A DNA stretch of 49,429 nt from Spirochaetales bacterium Spiro_02 (GTDB taxonomy: Bacteria; Spirochaetota; Spirochaetia; Sphaerochaetales; Sphaerochaetaceae), in NCBI GenBank assembly GCA_001604275.1, contig LVBD01000052.1, forward strand, positions 1-49,429, read 5' to 3'. The position numbers and the translations under genes were made by a program. The notes below the pieces were generated by a model. It was not told where the DNA came from, searched no databases, and saw only the letters and a program-made list of their open reading frames with translations. Shown here one piece after another: positions 12,078-16,373 of this stretch. Positions within the stretch are counted from its first letter, which is position 1. The number at the start of each line of letters is the position of its first letter.

Positions 12078-12384
12078 CAACGGCGGCTATCCACCGATAG
12101 GAAGGCGAAGTGGCATCCGGTTCGTCCGAGGGTGTGGAGAACGCCGGTATGAGGAATCCCGATAAGATTTTGTGGTCGTAGATACGAAGGATATCCGCTT
12201 CTGGAACGCCTTAGCGGCTTTCTGCGAAGACATTCCTGCTTGTCTGTGCGTTGACAAAGTGTATTGCCCTCCGTATAACTTGTAGACCGAGACCCCTGTC
12301 GAGACGGGGAATTCCTTCGTTCGTGCGGCCATTCGAGTCTTTCGATATGCTTGCGGCCCTGCTTTCGAAGGTGTGGAGATACGG
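12078..12384. other. leader and promoter region upstream of topA
   Basis: A 307-base gap without a credible gene. It holds a strong promoter at 12251-12279 and a leader of about 100 bases with a GC-rich hairpin (CCCC-T-GTC, loop GA, GACGGGG, 12294-12310). The first 170 bases show nothing recognisable. Confidence 0.5.
12251..12279 (+). promoter_or_regulatory. strong sigma70-type promoter for topA
   Basis: TTGACA (12251-12256), exactly 17 bases, TATAAC (12274-12279). The -35 is consensus and the -10 differs at one base. Transcription would start about 100 bases before the topA ATG. Confidence 0.75.
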
Positions 12385-14988
12385 ATGGAAGCAGATAAGA
12401 ACGAAAAGATCTTGATTATCGTCGAATCGCCGACCAAGGCGAAGACCATCAAGAAATTCCTCCCGCCCAATTGCGCGGTGATAGCATGTAACGGTCATAT
12501 TCGTGATCTTCCCGCCGATGATCTGTCGATTGATGTCGCAGACGGATACAAGCCCAAGTACGTGATCGCCTCCGGCAAGGACAAAATCATCAAGGCGATC
12601 AAGAGCGAACTCAAGGATGCTGCTTATCTGATGCTGGCAACCGATGAAGACCGTGAAGGGGAAAGTATTTCCTGGCATCTGCTGGAGGTGCTGCACCCCT
12701 CCGTGCCGTACCGGAGGATGGTGTTCCATGAAATCACCAAGCGTGCGATTCTGCAGGCGATGGATCATGGACGTGATCTCGATATGGCGCTTGTCAGGGC
12801 ACAGGAGGCGCGCCGTATTCTCGATCGGCTGTATGGCTACACACTTTCCCCGTTGCTGTGGAAAAAGCTTTCGAATAAGAATCTGTCGGCAGGACGGGTC
12901 CAGTCCCCCGGGCTGCGGCTGATCGTGGATCGTGAACGACAGCGGATCACGTTCGAAAAGAGCGTGTACTGGGATGCCAAGGCGCTGCTGGCGAAGCATG
13001 GGGCGGCCAAGGCCGGTGCCTCGGCCCGTTTCGAGACGAAGCTGGAATCTGTCGGCGAGCTCCGTGTCGCAGGAAGCAAGGATTTCGATTCCGTGACGGG
13101 CCGACTTTCCGATTCCAAGCAGATCCTGGTGCTCGACCAGCCGGCGGCGGAGGCGTTGGTCGAAACGCTGAAGGACGCGACCTGGACAGTCGGAGAAATC
13201 AAGGAACGTCCGGTGGTATCCCGTCCTGCGCCGCCGTTCATCACTAGCACGCTTCAGCAGGAAGGAAACAGGAAGCTCCGTCTCAGCGCCAAAGATACGA
13301 TGAAGGTCGCCCAGAAGTTGTACGAAAACGGATTCATCACGTACATGCGTACCGATTCCCCGACATTGAGCCAGGAAGGCATCGCAGCGGCTCGCAAGAG
13401 CGTCGAGACGCTGTATGGGCCGTCGTTCCTGTCTCCGGCGCCACGTCAATATTCCGCGAAATCAGCTTCGGCGCAGGAAGCCCATGAGGCGATCCGTCCC
13501 GCTGGAGACGAATTCATCCATCCGGAACGGTCCGGCCTGCATGGCAAGGAGCTTGCTCTGTACGAAATGATCTGGAAACGGACGCTCGCCTGCCAGATGG
13601 CGGATGCCAGGAAGAGCTCCACGACCGTCAAGGTCGACGCCTCCTGCCATGACGGACAGCGGGCTCGTTTCAGCGCCACCGGAACCCGCATCCTCTTCCC
13701 CGGGTTCATCCGCGTCTATGTGGAGGGCGTCGACGATCCGGAAGCTGCGCTGGACGACAAGGAAGTGCTGCTGCCCGATCTCGCGGAAGGGGAGGTCCTC
13801 GATCTGGGAGAATTGATGCCCGTCTCCCACGAGACGAAGCCACCTGCCAGGTTCACGGAGGCGACGCTGGTCCAGGAACTGGAGAAAATGGGAATCGGCA
13901 GACCGTCCACCTATGCGACGATCATCGACAAGTTGTTCGAGCGCAAATATGTGGTCAAGGACGGGAACGCCCTCGTGCCGACGTTCACCGGGTTCGGTGT
14001 CGTCCAGTTGCTCGAGAATAATTTCTCTACGATGGTCGACTACGGCTTCACTTCCACGATGGAGGATGGGTTGGATAGGATCGCTACGGGAGGTATCGAC
14101 GAACTGCAGTTCCTCAAGGATTTCTACGAGGGGGAACACGGGCTGTTGCGCCAGGTGCAGCAACGGTCCGAAGCGATCCTGCCGTCAGTAGCGAAGCAGA
14201 TTTCGCTGCCGCAGATTTCCTCCGATCATCCGGTGATGATCGGACCGTATGGCGCATACGTGATTGGTCCGAAATCGGGTGGCAAGGATCAGTTCATCTC
14301 GCTGCCTGATACGATGTTCCCCGGGACGATCACCGATGCGGATGTCGCGGATCTGATCCAGCGACGCAAGGAGAATGCCGAGGGCCCCAAGGTGGTGGGG
14401 GAGGATCCTGACACCGGGCTTCCTGTTTTGCTGATGTCCGGCCGTTTCGGCGCATATTGGCAACTCGGTGAGAAATCCGAGCAAAATCCGCTTCCCAAAC
14501 GGTTCAGTGTCCCGAAAGGACAAGACGCTGATTCTTTTCCGCTTCCGAAGATTCTCCGATACTTCGAGCTTCCGCGGACCATCGGCGTCAATCCCGCCGA
14601 CAACGAGCCGGTGATAGCGAATCAGGGGAAATTCGGGCCCTACGTCGGGAGCGCCGGTGAATACCGTTCCCTTGGCGACGAAGAGCGGATGTTTTCGATA
14701 ACGCTGGATGAGGCTCTCGCGCTTTTGGCAGAGCCGAAGCCGGGAAGGTCCTCGAAATCCGGCAAGGGAGGGGCCGGACGCAAGAAGCCCGGTCAGGTTT
14801 CCCAACCGTTGATCGACCTGGGTGTCTACGAGGGGGAGAAGGTCGGTGTCTATCATGGTCGGTTCGGCAATTATCTGAAGCATGGCAAGGACAATTATGC
14901 GTTGCCTGGCGATTTGAAGAAAAGTGAAGAGGCGCTCAAACAACTGACACTGGAGCAGGCTGTCGAAATCATCAAGAAAAAGAAATGA
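12385..14988 (+). CDS. topA: DNA topoisomerase I
   Basis: An 867-residue type IA topoisomerase that relaxes negative supercoils. The toprim domain opens with IVESPTKAKTIKKFL and has the acidic ATDEDREGESISWH motif. The catalytic tyrosine is Tyr320 in GFITYMRTDS. The C-terminus lacks the four-cysteine zinc fingers of the E. coli enzyme. It instead has glycine/aromatic topoisomerase C-terminal repeats (GPYGAYVIG, SGRFGAYW, QGKFGPYVG, HGRFGNYLK), as in many non-proteobacterial enzymes. It ends in a lysine tail (IIKKKK). The ATG at 12385 has GGAG 6 bases upstream and is preferred to a GTG at 12373. It is likely expressed from the strong promoter about 100 bases upstream, independently of its neighbours. 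Confidence 0.97.
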   Translation: MEADKNEKILIIVESPTKAKTIKKFLPPNCAVIACNGHIRDLPADDLSIDVADGYKPKYVIASGKDKIIKAIKSELKDAAYLMLATDEDREGESISWHLLEVLHPSVPYRRMVFHEITKRAILQAMDHGRDLDMALVRAQEARRILDRLYGYTLSPLLWKKLSNKNLSAGRVQSPGLRLIVDRERQRITFEKSVYWDAKALLAKHGAAKAGASARFETKLESVGELRVAGSKDFDSVTGRLSDSKQILVLDQPAAEALVETLKDATWTVGEIKERPVVSRPAPPFITSTLQQEGNRKLRLSAKDTMKVAQKLYENGFITYMRTDSPTLSQEGIAAARKSVETLYGPSFLSPAPRQYSAKSASAQEAHEAIRPAGDEFIHPERSGLHGKELALYEMIWKRTLACQMADARKSSTTVKVDASCHDGQRARFSATGTRILFPGFIRVYVEGVDDPEAALDDKEVLLPDLAEGEVLDLGELMPVSHETKPPARFTEATLVQELEKMGIGRPSTYATIIDKLFERKYVVKDGNALVPTFTGFGVVQLLENNFSTMVDYGFTSTMEDGLDRIATGGIDELQFLKDFYEGEHGLLRQVQQRSEAILPSVAKQISLPQISSDHPVMIGPYGAYVIGPKSGGKDQFISLPDTMFPGTITDADVADLIQRRKENAEGPKVVGEDPDTGLPVLLMSGRFGAYWQLGEKSEQNPLPKRFSVPKGQDADSFPLPKILRYFELPRTIGVNPADNEPVIANQGKFGPYVGSAGEYRSLGDEERMFSITLDEALALLAEPKPGRSSKSGKGGAGRKKPGQVSQPLIDLGVYEGEKVGVYHGRFGNYLKHGKDNYALPGDLKKSEEALKQLTLEQAVEIIKKKK

Positions 14989-15089: not shown

Positions 15090-15118
15090 TTGACCGCTTC
15101 GGCTGCCGCCTGTATTGT
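15090..15118 (+). promoter_or_regulatory. promoter for the PIN-domain gene
   Basis: TTGACC (15090-15095), 17 bases, TATTGT (15113-15118), about 60 bases before the ATG. It lies within the 191-base gap after topA, in which nothing else is recognised. Confidence 0.5.
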
Positions 15119-15179: not shown

Positions 15180-16373
15180 ATGAGTACTAGCCCTGCAAGA
15201 AGGCGTTCGAATACATATATGAAACGGTCGGTGCGTCGGCCGGTCAAGCCCGTCTATACCGATGTGGTCGGTACATTGTCAAAGGAGTTCGGAGTTCCTG
15301 CCGCGAAAGTGGAGGAAACGTTGCGCGGGTGCGGGCTCAACCTCGCTCAAGACGAGCGAGGGGAGCGGATGCCCCTCTACCGCGAGATCCTCAGCTGTAG
15401 ATTCGGTCGCTTCGAATTGTATGCTTCAGGCGATGCCGCGGTGGAGGCGCTTCTCGATGAACAGCTTCGGGTCTTCGATGAAATCTATGTCGATACCGCG
15501 CCGATCATCCAGGAGGATTGGTTCCTCAAGTTCCTCGGCGATGCGATTGCGGTTCTCAGGCGAAGGAAGAAGCGTCTCATCATTCTGGAAAAGACGATGG
15601 AGGAGCTTCATGGGTTGAAGGACAATCCTGAAAAGGACTGGGACGTCCGCATCCGTGCCTTGATCCGGCCGGAGTTGATCAGATCGCTCGCTAGGAAAGG
15701 ACTCGTCAGGATACAGGATACGGGTTCCAGAGGGATCGCCGATGATCATCTTGTTTCCGTGTTTGCGGCAAAGCGGCAGAGGGAATCCTTGCTGCTGATC
15801 ACTCAGGATCGCGGGCTGAGCGAGCGTATCGTACGGATCGCCGCTGAGCCTGTCGTACCGGTGGAAGTCCGGGAACGGAACGGATTCTTCGCCCGGATAT
15901 TCGGAAAACGGCCGGCTGAGCAGGTCGTCGTCGATCGCAAGATGATGGTCTGCAAGTTCGATGAATCGGGAGCGTTGCGCAGATTCTATCTCTGCCCGGA
16001 TTGCGGCGAGAGCTTTTACGATCTTCCTGTGGAAGGAAACGGCATGGTGCTGTGTCGTCGTTGCTATCAGAATCGCCTGGCTGAGGAACAAGCCGCGGCC
16101 AAACGCGCGCAAGTCGAGGCGAAGCGCGTCGAGGAACGTGCCCGGAGGCAGGAGCTGAAGGCTGCGGAGGATGCTCGACGGGAACTTGAGAAGAAAGAGG
16201 CCGAGGAGGCCAGACTGGCGGCGGAACGAGCTGCTGCGAAAGCTTCGGCGCGGGAAATCCGTACCGTGGAGGATGCCGTGAAGCGAAACCGGCGGCGATA
16301 TATGCGCCTGGTGCTGTCGATCATCGTTTCGTTGGCTGCTTTCGGACTGCTGGTTTTTCTGTTCGTTTCTTGA
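15180..16373 (+). CDS. tail-anchored PIN-like nuclease with zinc ribbon
   Basis: A 397-residue protein with an unusual layout. Residues about 100-220 resemble a PIN nuclease fold, with the four acidic positions plausibly Asp105 (YVDTAPI), Glu141/142, Asp188/189 (IADDHLVSVFAAKR) and Asp210 (LLITQDRGLS). A zinc ribbon follows (Cys272, Cys275, Cys292, Cys295). Residues 300-360 are an Ala/Glu/Arg-rich coiled coil. A single hydrophobic segment at about 376-396 ends the protein, so it should be C-terminally anchored with the nuclease in the cytoplasm. The N-terminal 20 residues are very basic. GGGAG precedes the ATG by 9 bases. PIN domains usually cleave RNA; this target is unknown. It has no adjacent antitoxin, so a classic VapC role is unlikely. 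Confidence 0.7.
   Translation: MSTSPARRRSNTYMKRSVRRPVKPVYTDVVGTLSKEFGVPAAKVEETLRGCGLNLAQDERGERMPLYREILSCRFGRFELYASGDAAVEALLDEQLRVFDEIYVDTAPIIQEDWFLKFLGDAIAVLRRRKKRLIILEKTMEELHGLKDNPEKDWDVRIRALIRPELIRSLARKGLVRIQDTGSRGIADDHLVSVFAAKRQRESLLLITQDRGLSERIVRIAAEPVVPVEVRERNGFFARIFGKRPAEQVVVDRKMMVCKFDESGALRRFYLCPDCGESFYDLPVEGNGMVLCRRCYQNRLAEEQAAAKRAQVEAKRVEERARRQELKAAEDARRELEKKEAEEARLAAERAAAKASAREIRTVEDAVKRNRRRYMRLVLSIIVSLAAFGLLVFLFVS

What the first reader, a model, noticed from the sequence alone, without database searches (positions are those of the whole stretch)
15180..16373. PIN-like nuclease with zinc ribbon, coiled coil and C-terminal membrane anchor
I know of no named bacterial family with this domain order. 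The acidic residues of a PIN active site appear present and there is no antitoxin next to it. A membrane-tethered cytoplasmic RNase could act in RNA decay at the membrane, as RNase Y does in other bacteria, or in stress-dependent tRNA or rRNA cleavage.
Basis: partly seen in the sequence, partly recalled or inferred. Interest (0 to 1): 0.65.

Follow-up and report, generated by a model that had tools for sequence, protein, structure and literature searches.

The report
Membrane-anchored PIN nuclease with zinc ribbon
A group of spirochaetes carries, directly behind the DNA topoisomerase I gene, a gene for a predicted RNA-cutting enzyme that appears to be held on the inner side of the cell membrane by a tail at its end; it looks like a genuine but lineage-restricted housekeeping protein whose RNA target is unknown.

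Summary
Window 15180-16373 (+) is one intact 397-aa gene. An AlphaFold2 model has a PIN fold (about residues 98-225), a zinc ribbon (255-295), a long helix (293-355) and a C-terminal hydrophobic helix. The PIN part matches Utp24 (Z 11.8) and SMG6 (Z 11.1), and it links by sequence to two spirochaete proteins that pass Pfam PIN_4. D105, E142, D188, D189 and D210 are identical in 32 of 32 distinct homologues; the ribbon cysteines are nearly so. All 30 homologues with an intact C terminus keep a hydrophobic tail.

The gene is in 33 of 124 genomes of its own spirochaete family. No same-architecture copy turned up in the other genomes sampled nor in phage or plasmid records. It lies behind topA in 31 of 31 readable loci. 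No VapB-like partner is adjacent. RNase Y is also present, so it does not replace RNase Y.

Best reading: a tail-anchored, metal-dependent PIN endoribonuclease in a topA operon, probably housekeeping. Fold, residues, tail and linkage rest on computation; catalysis, location and target are inferred. New variant of a known kind.

The parts
15180..16373 (+). whole gene, 397 aa: helical N domain - PIN - zinc ribbon - long helix - tail anchor
15258..15470 (+). N-terminal helical region (residues 27-97), no fold match found
15471..15854 (+). PIN domain (residues 98-225)
15492..15494 (+). D105, predicted catalytic acid 1
   Evidence: invariant 32 of 32
15603..15605 (+). E142, predicted catalytic acid 2
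   Evidence: invariant 32 of 32
15741..15746 (+). D188-D189, predicted catalytic acid 3 (D188 kept in the distant relative too)
15807..15809 (+). D210, predicted catalytic acid 4
   Evidence: invariant 32 of 32
15939..16070 (+). zinc ribbon (residues 254-297), C272/C275 and C292/C295, extra invariant C258
16056..16244 (+). long charged helix, probable coiled coil (residues 293-355)
16266..16370 (+). basic stretch and C-terminal hydrophobic helix (residues 363-397), predicted tail anchor
12373..14988 (+). topA (DNA topoisomerase I), conserved upstream neighbour
15090..15118 (+). sigma-70-like promoter match between topA and the gene; weak, 9 of 12
   Evidence: 2 found in the region, shuffles 0.6 with sd 0.8

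Best explanation
It is a housekeeping, membrane-tethered, metal-dependent PIN endoribonuclease. SHOWN BY COMPUTATION: PIN fold; a complete invariant acid set (D105, E142, D188/189, D210); a zinc ribbon; a conserved hydrophobic C-terminal helix behind a basic stretch; linkage to topA. INFERRED: the four acids bind Mg2+/Mn2+ and cut single-stranded RNA; the zinc ribbon and helical N domain bind or position the substrate; the C-terminal helix inserts into the inner membrane with the basic flank and the whole enzyme on the cytoplasmic side; the coil sets distance or dimerises; the gene is co-expressed with topA in most species. The target (mRNA, rRNA precursor or tRNA) is unknown.
For: Fold: model; one search gives Utp24 5yz4 Z 11.8 (rmsd 3.3 over 131) and SMG6 2hww Z 11.1 (2.7 over 125); the first 30 or so rows are PIN proteins or complexes holding one, as read from their titles and from recall. 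Sequence: a PIN-only profile of the 32 family members scores 35.3 and 35.2 bits on two spirochaete proteins that pass Pfam PIN_4 (27.8 and 24.1 bits, cut-off 21.9); the best of 400 shuffles scored 8.1 and the best unrelated window ORF 4.5, out of 594 sequences searched. Acids: 32 of 32, and D105, E142, D188 and D210 also kept in the distant relative. Zinc: C258, C272, C275 32 of 32, C295 31 of 31, C292 29 of 31. Domain identity among 22 members: PIN 73%, ribbon 65%, tail 26%, yet the tail stays hydrophobic in 30 of 30 complete sequences (19-residue maximum 2.45-3.82), with 4-8 K/R just before it in 22 of 22. Housekeeping: same strand directly behind topA in 31 of 31 readable loci, 27 of them with a gap of 16 nt or less; one match in each of the 33 genomes that carry it, G133 showing it as two pieces on two contigs; no hit in phage, plasmid or viral-contig collections.
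Against: No direct evidence of RNase activity, membrane location or zinc binding. No profile library names the PIN domain in the protein itself. PIN folds also include DNA nucleases: the ExoIX/flap endonuclease rows (Z about 7.5) are lower but present. 91 of 124 family genomes lack the gene, so it is dispensable in this family. In the window the topA gap is 191 nt with a weak promoter match, so co-transcription is not shown there.
Confidence: 0.6

Rival explanations
1. A DNA- or R-loop-directed nuclease that works with topoisomerase I: TopA relaxes negative supercoils and limits R-loops, and the PIN protein removes the RNA or nicks DNA, with tethering to membrane-attached transcription.
For: Linkage to topA in 31 of 31 readable loci, usually within 16 nt. 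Some PIN-fold enzymes act on DNA (flap endonuclease and ExoIX rows).
Against: topA is kept without this gene in many genomes of the family and class: the 19 stretches beyond topA that I read in genomes lacking it hold other genes, so TopA does not need it. The nearest folds are mostly RNA nucleases. Operon partners need not share a pathway.
Confidence: 0.15
2. A stress- or conflict-activated RNase (toxin-like) that is kept inactive by its membrane tether or another factor.
For: PIN domains are the VapC toxin fold. The nearest sequence relatives outside the family include a PIN fused to a protein kinase, an arrangement that suggests signalling or defence.
Against: No small antitoxin-like gene is adjacent: topA lies upstream, an aminotransferase downstream. 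One copy, fixed locus, 73% identical PIN domain, absent from mobile-element collections. No PADLOC match to the PIN part.
Confidence: 0.12
3. A Nob1/Utp24-like ribosomal RNA processing enzyme that has become membrane-tethered.
For: Best fold matches are Utp24 in pre-ribosomes; PIN with a zinc element is shared with Nob1 and Utp23/Utp24; in hUTP23 the zinc finger is needed for RNA binding (passages of PMC5416842).
Against: Utp24's zinc ligands lie inside the PIN domain (Cys103, Cys132, His134, Cys142; passage of PMC5895043), not in a separate ribbon. Most family genomes do without the gene. rRNA maturation in bacteria has its own enzymes (recalled).
Confidence: 0.1

Closest known systems
Pfam PIN_4 (PF13638), the PhoH-associated PIN group
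   Same: Linked by sequence through two spirochaete proteins that pass the PIN_4 cut-off; same acid pattern.
   Different: The window protein itself does not reach PIN_4's cut-off; no PhoH ATPase domain; added zinc ribbon and tail anchor.
Utp24/Fcf1, Utp23 and Nob1 (eukaryotic and archaeal pre-rRNA PIN nucleases with zinc elements)
   Same: Closest solved fold (Utp24, Z 11.8); PIN plus zinc element.
   Different: Zinc site placed differently in Utp24 (passage); no membrane anchor; different organisms.
YacL-type PIN-TRAM proteins (TTHA0540 group; PDB 3ix7, a Thermus PIN domain; that 3ix7 is TTHA0540 is recalled)
   Same: Bacterial PIN, Z 10.3; the group is membrane-bound (recalled). Disrupting TTHA0540 in Thermus changed no mRNA significantly (passages of PMC4229858).
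   Different: YacL has N-terminal membrane helices (recalled) and a TRAM domain (passage for TTHA0540); here the anchor is C-terminal and the extra domain is a zinc ribbon.
RNase Y
   Same: Membrane-tethered endoribonuclease with a coil (recalled).
   Different: KH-HD enzyme with an N-terminal anchor (recalled); both genes are present in this genome.

Membership tests
PIN domain superfamily | alpha/beta/alpha PIN fold | tested here: met
   PIN structures head both lists
PIN domain superfamily | three to four conserved acids at the PIN positions | tested here: met
   D105, E142, D188/D189, D210 in 32 of 32; D105, E142, D188 and D210 kept in the distant PIN_4 relative
PIN domain superfamily | nuclease activity | not testable with these tools
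   no experiment
Pfam PIN_4 (PF13638) | score over the curated cut-off of 21.9 bits | tested here: not met
   no PIN_4 row for the window protein up to E 10; 2 of 22 members at E 0.6 or worse
VapBC toxin-antitoxin | adjacent small antitoxin gene | tested here: not met
   neighbours are topA and an aminotransferase; topA upstream in 31 of 31 loci. Downstream neighbours of the homologues were not tabulated
Nob1/Utp24 pre-rRNA nucleases | zinc site as in Utp24, within the PIN domain | tested here: not met
   here the cysteines lie at 258-295, after the PIN domain; Utp24 ligands. Nob1's ribbon was not compared residue by residue
RNase Y | RNase Y model (TIGR03319) match | tested here: not met
   no such row for this protein in NCBIfam; a separate RNase Y gene exists at G000:C53
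YacL-type PIN-TRAM | TRAM domain after the PIN domain | tested here: not met
   the part after the PIN domain is ribbon, helix and hydrophobic tail; no TRAM row
Tail-anchored membrane protein | hydrophobic helix at the extreme C terminus | tested here: met
   30 of 30 complete sequences hydrophobic at the C terminus; insertion itself not testable
FYDLN_acid (PF09538) | score over cut-off 23.9 bits | tested here: inconclusive
   24.1 bits over residues 271-342, ribbon plus charged helix; the TIGR02300 cut-off is not reached

The most novel reading that the evidence does not exclude
A tail-anchored PIN-zinc-ribbon endoribonuclease that defines a second, independent route by which bacteria place an initiating RNA-decay or RNA-processing cut at the inner membrane, working beside RNase Y and coupled through its operon to topoisomerase I and so to transcription-driven supercoiling.
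Probability: 0.15. Interest if true: 0.7.

Novelty: new variant of a known kind. Interest (0 to 1): 0.42.

Why it matters
If the enzyme cuts RNA at the membrane it would be a non-toxin PIN nuclease with a housekeeping role in bacteria, where most studied PINs are VapC toxins (recalled). Named Sphaerochaeta isolates carry it, so the assay and perhaps the knock-out are feasible. Its absence in most related genera gives a natural comparison.

Tried and rejected
RNase Y replacement: rejected; RNase Y at E <= 0.001 in 122 of 123 family genomes, over the cut-off in 116. Of the 33 genomes that carry the PIN gene, 29 have RNase Y over the cut-off; G033, G116, G130 and G134 show only weak stretches. 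All four are multi-contig drafts and the gene may lie in a gap.

RNase E/G: none over the cut-off in 37 of 37 genomes with or without the gene, so uninformative.

Protein-only RNase P: unlikely; RNase P RNA is found in 33 of 37 genomes including the window's own. One PIN-bearing genome (G004) gave no match, as did G005, G008 and G050.

Direct PhoH-PIN comparison: a first hhalign of the nine A1 rows against five sequences gave probability 1.6, a failure; only 5 of 10 fetched loci matched my motif, and one of those was a different PIN_4 protein. The bridge through searches replaced it.

N-terminal region: Pfam gave only scattered hits, IF2_N in 1 of 22 at E 0.19; separate model weak, pLDDT 67.8; no Foldseek hit under E 2.6. 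My idea of an IF2_N-like domain is not supported. The zinc ribbon was not predicted or searched alone.

Distribution on a TopA tree: the six PIN-bearing rows of 27 need three changes; one gain with two losses is possible, the root is not settled.

Paper searches that found nothing on this protein: PIN domain with Sphaerochaeta, 0 papers; PIN domain with membrane-anchored, endoribonuclease, bacteria and zinc, 0 papers; Sphaerochaeta with RNase, 27 papers, 15 listings seen, none on an RNase of this kind by title. Only open-licence PMC papers are held.

Full report
OBSERVATION. The gene at 15180-16373 (+) is real: one open frame of 397 aa, single copy in a 2.61-Mb, 74-contig draft genome. Homologues come from records named Sphaerochaeta, Pleomorphochaeta, Sphaerochaetaceae or unnamed Spirochaetales/Spirochaetaceae/Spirochaetia (22 loci), so the window is very probably a spirochaete of that family.

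FOLD. Neither Pfam nor NCBIfam names a PIN domain in the protein. The AlphaFold2 model from nine sequences has mean pLDDT 80.6, with most blocks of residues 90-220 at 90-95. Its order of elements is strand 101-104, helices, strand 133-136, helices, strand 176-179, helix, strand 204-207, helix: a PIN topology. Foldseek's best solved match is SMG6 (E 8e-4, the only one under 0.001). The second look gives Utp24 Z 11.8, SMG6 11.1, the Thermus PIN domain 3ix7 10.3 and AF0591 9.6. SMG6 residue 1243 aligns with model residue 97, so by constant offset D105 falls on 1251; with Utp24 (94 to 60) D105 and E142 fall within one residue of Asp70 and Glu107. These two mappings are my inference from range ends; the Utp24 catalytic residues are from a passage of PMC5895043.

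SEQUENCE BRIDGE. A search of 392 genomes of the phylum with the family profile found, outside the family, one PIN-region match at E 1.5e-7 in a genome of the same class; its other four matches outside the family were weaker and to the coil or ribbon part. That 317-aa protein (P0002) passes Pfam PIN_4 with 27.8 bits. A PIN-only search found a second relative, a 539-aa PIN-kinase fusion, which also passes PIN_4 with 24.1 bits, and a broken match in G599 that I did not read. A PIN profile built from the 32 family members alone scores both at 35 bits, against at most 8.1 for 400 shuffles and 4.5 for the other window ORFs (594 sequences in all). hhalign gives 95.9% for P0002; the 97.7% for the fusion used a profile that already included P0002.

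CONSERVATION. Among 32 distinct sequences (from loci L001-L062, identical copies merged) D105, E137, E141, E142, D188, D189 and D210 never vary. Adding P0002, the columns that stay invariant include D105, E142, D188 and D210, which picks out the usual four PIN acids. The zinc cysteines C272, C275 and C295 never vary where present; C292 is Asp in 2 of 31; an extra Cys, C258, never varies. Mean pairwise identity over 22 members is 73% in the PIN, 65% in the ribbon, 40% in the helical N region and in the coil, 26% in the tail. The tail's letters drift while its hydrophobicity is kept in all 30 sequences with a complete C terminus (two of the 32 run off a contig), which is what a membrane anchor would show. 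A basic stretch stands before it in 22 of 22 (4-8 K/R in 21 residues), so by the positive-inside rule (recalled) the enzyme would face the cytoplasm.

DISTRIBUTION AND CONTEXT. 33 of 124 genomes of the own family, in 5 of 22 genera, have it. In 297 genomes of the class and 392 of the phylum no genome outside the family has a full-length match (these samples overlap with the family). A motif scan of 84,980 species found 22 loci, all spirochaete; it finds close relatives only. No match in 50,697 phage records, 72,556 plasmids or viral contigs (158 pattern hits, none confirmed). topA lies directly upstream on the same strand in 31 of 31 loci that reach that far; the 32nd, L055, ends first. The gap is 16 nt or less in 27, and 191, 188, 107 and 103 nt in the window and three others. 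I recognised topA by Pfam in the window, by reading in the loci, and elsewhere by its C-terminal end. In genomes lacking the gene the 19 stretches I read beyond topA show other neighbours, often a PAP2-like phosphatase on the opposite strand (named from recall).

MECHANISM. The most likely function is an endoribonuclease held at the inner membrane. Fold, acids, zinc ligands and tail are supported by computation. Activity, substrate and location are inferred. It is not in place of RNase Y, probably not of RNase P, and not a VapC of a pair. Whether the topA link is functional or only an operon of convenience is open.

COMPARISON AND VERDICT. The protein belongs to the PIN superfamily by fold and acid set, near Pfam PIN_4 by sequence, but fails that model's cut-off. 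The combination of PIN, zinc ribbon, coil and C-terminal anchor matched no model in Pfam, NCBIfam or PHROGs and no paper in the searches listed. It is a lineage-restricted new variant of a known kind, testable in cultured species.

Noticed in passing
L145:322-1941 (-): A class-mate genome encodes a PIN domain fused to a protein kinase domain (PIN_4 24.1 bits, Pkinase 37.2 bits), next to an ORF that looks like a transposase (named from recall).
   Followed up: partly
L118:5278-6228 (+): A PIN_4 protein whose second half is made of short G-D/N-I repeats, with only a weak Bactofilin hit (E 0.084).
   Followed up: partly
own family, search: PIN_4 (PhoH-type PIN) is absent in 19 of 19 sampled genomes of the own family, the window's included, but present in 9 of 12 other genomes of the class.
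   Followed up: no
L007 and L008, zinc ribbon: In one genus the third ribbon cysteine (C292) is replaced by Asp while the other cysteines stay.
   Followed up: no
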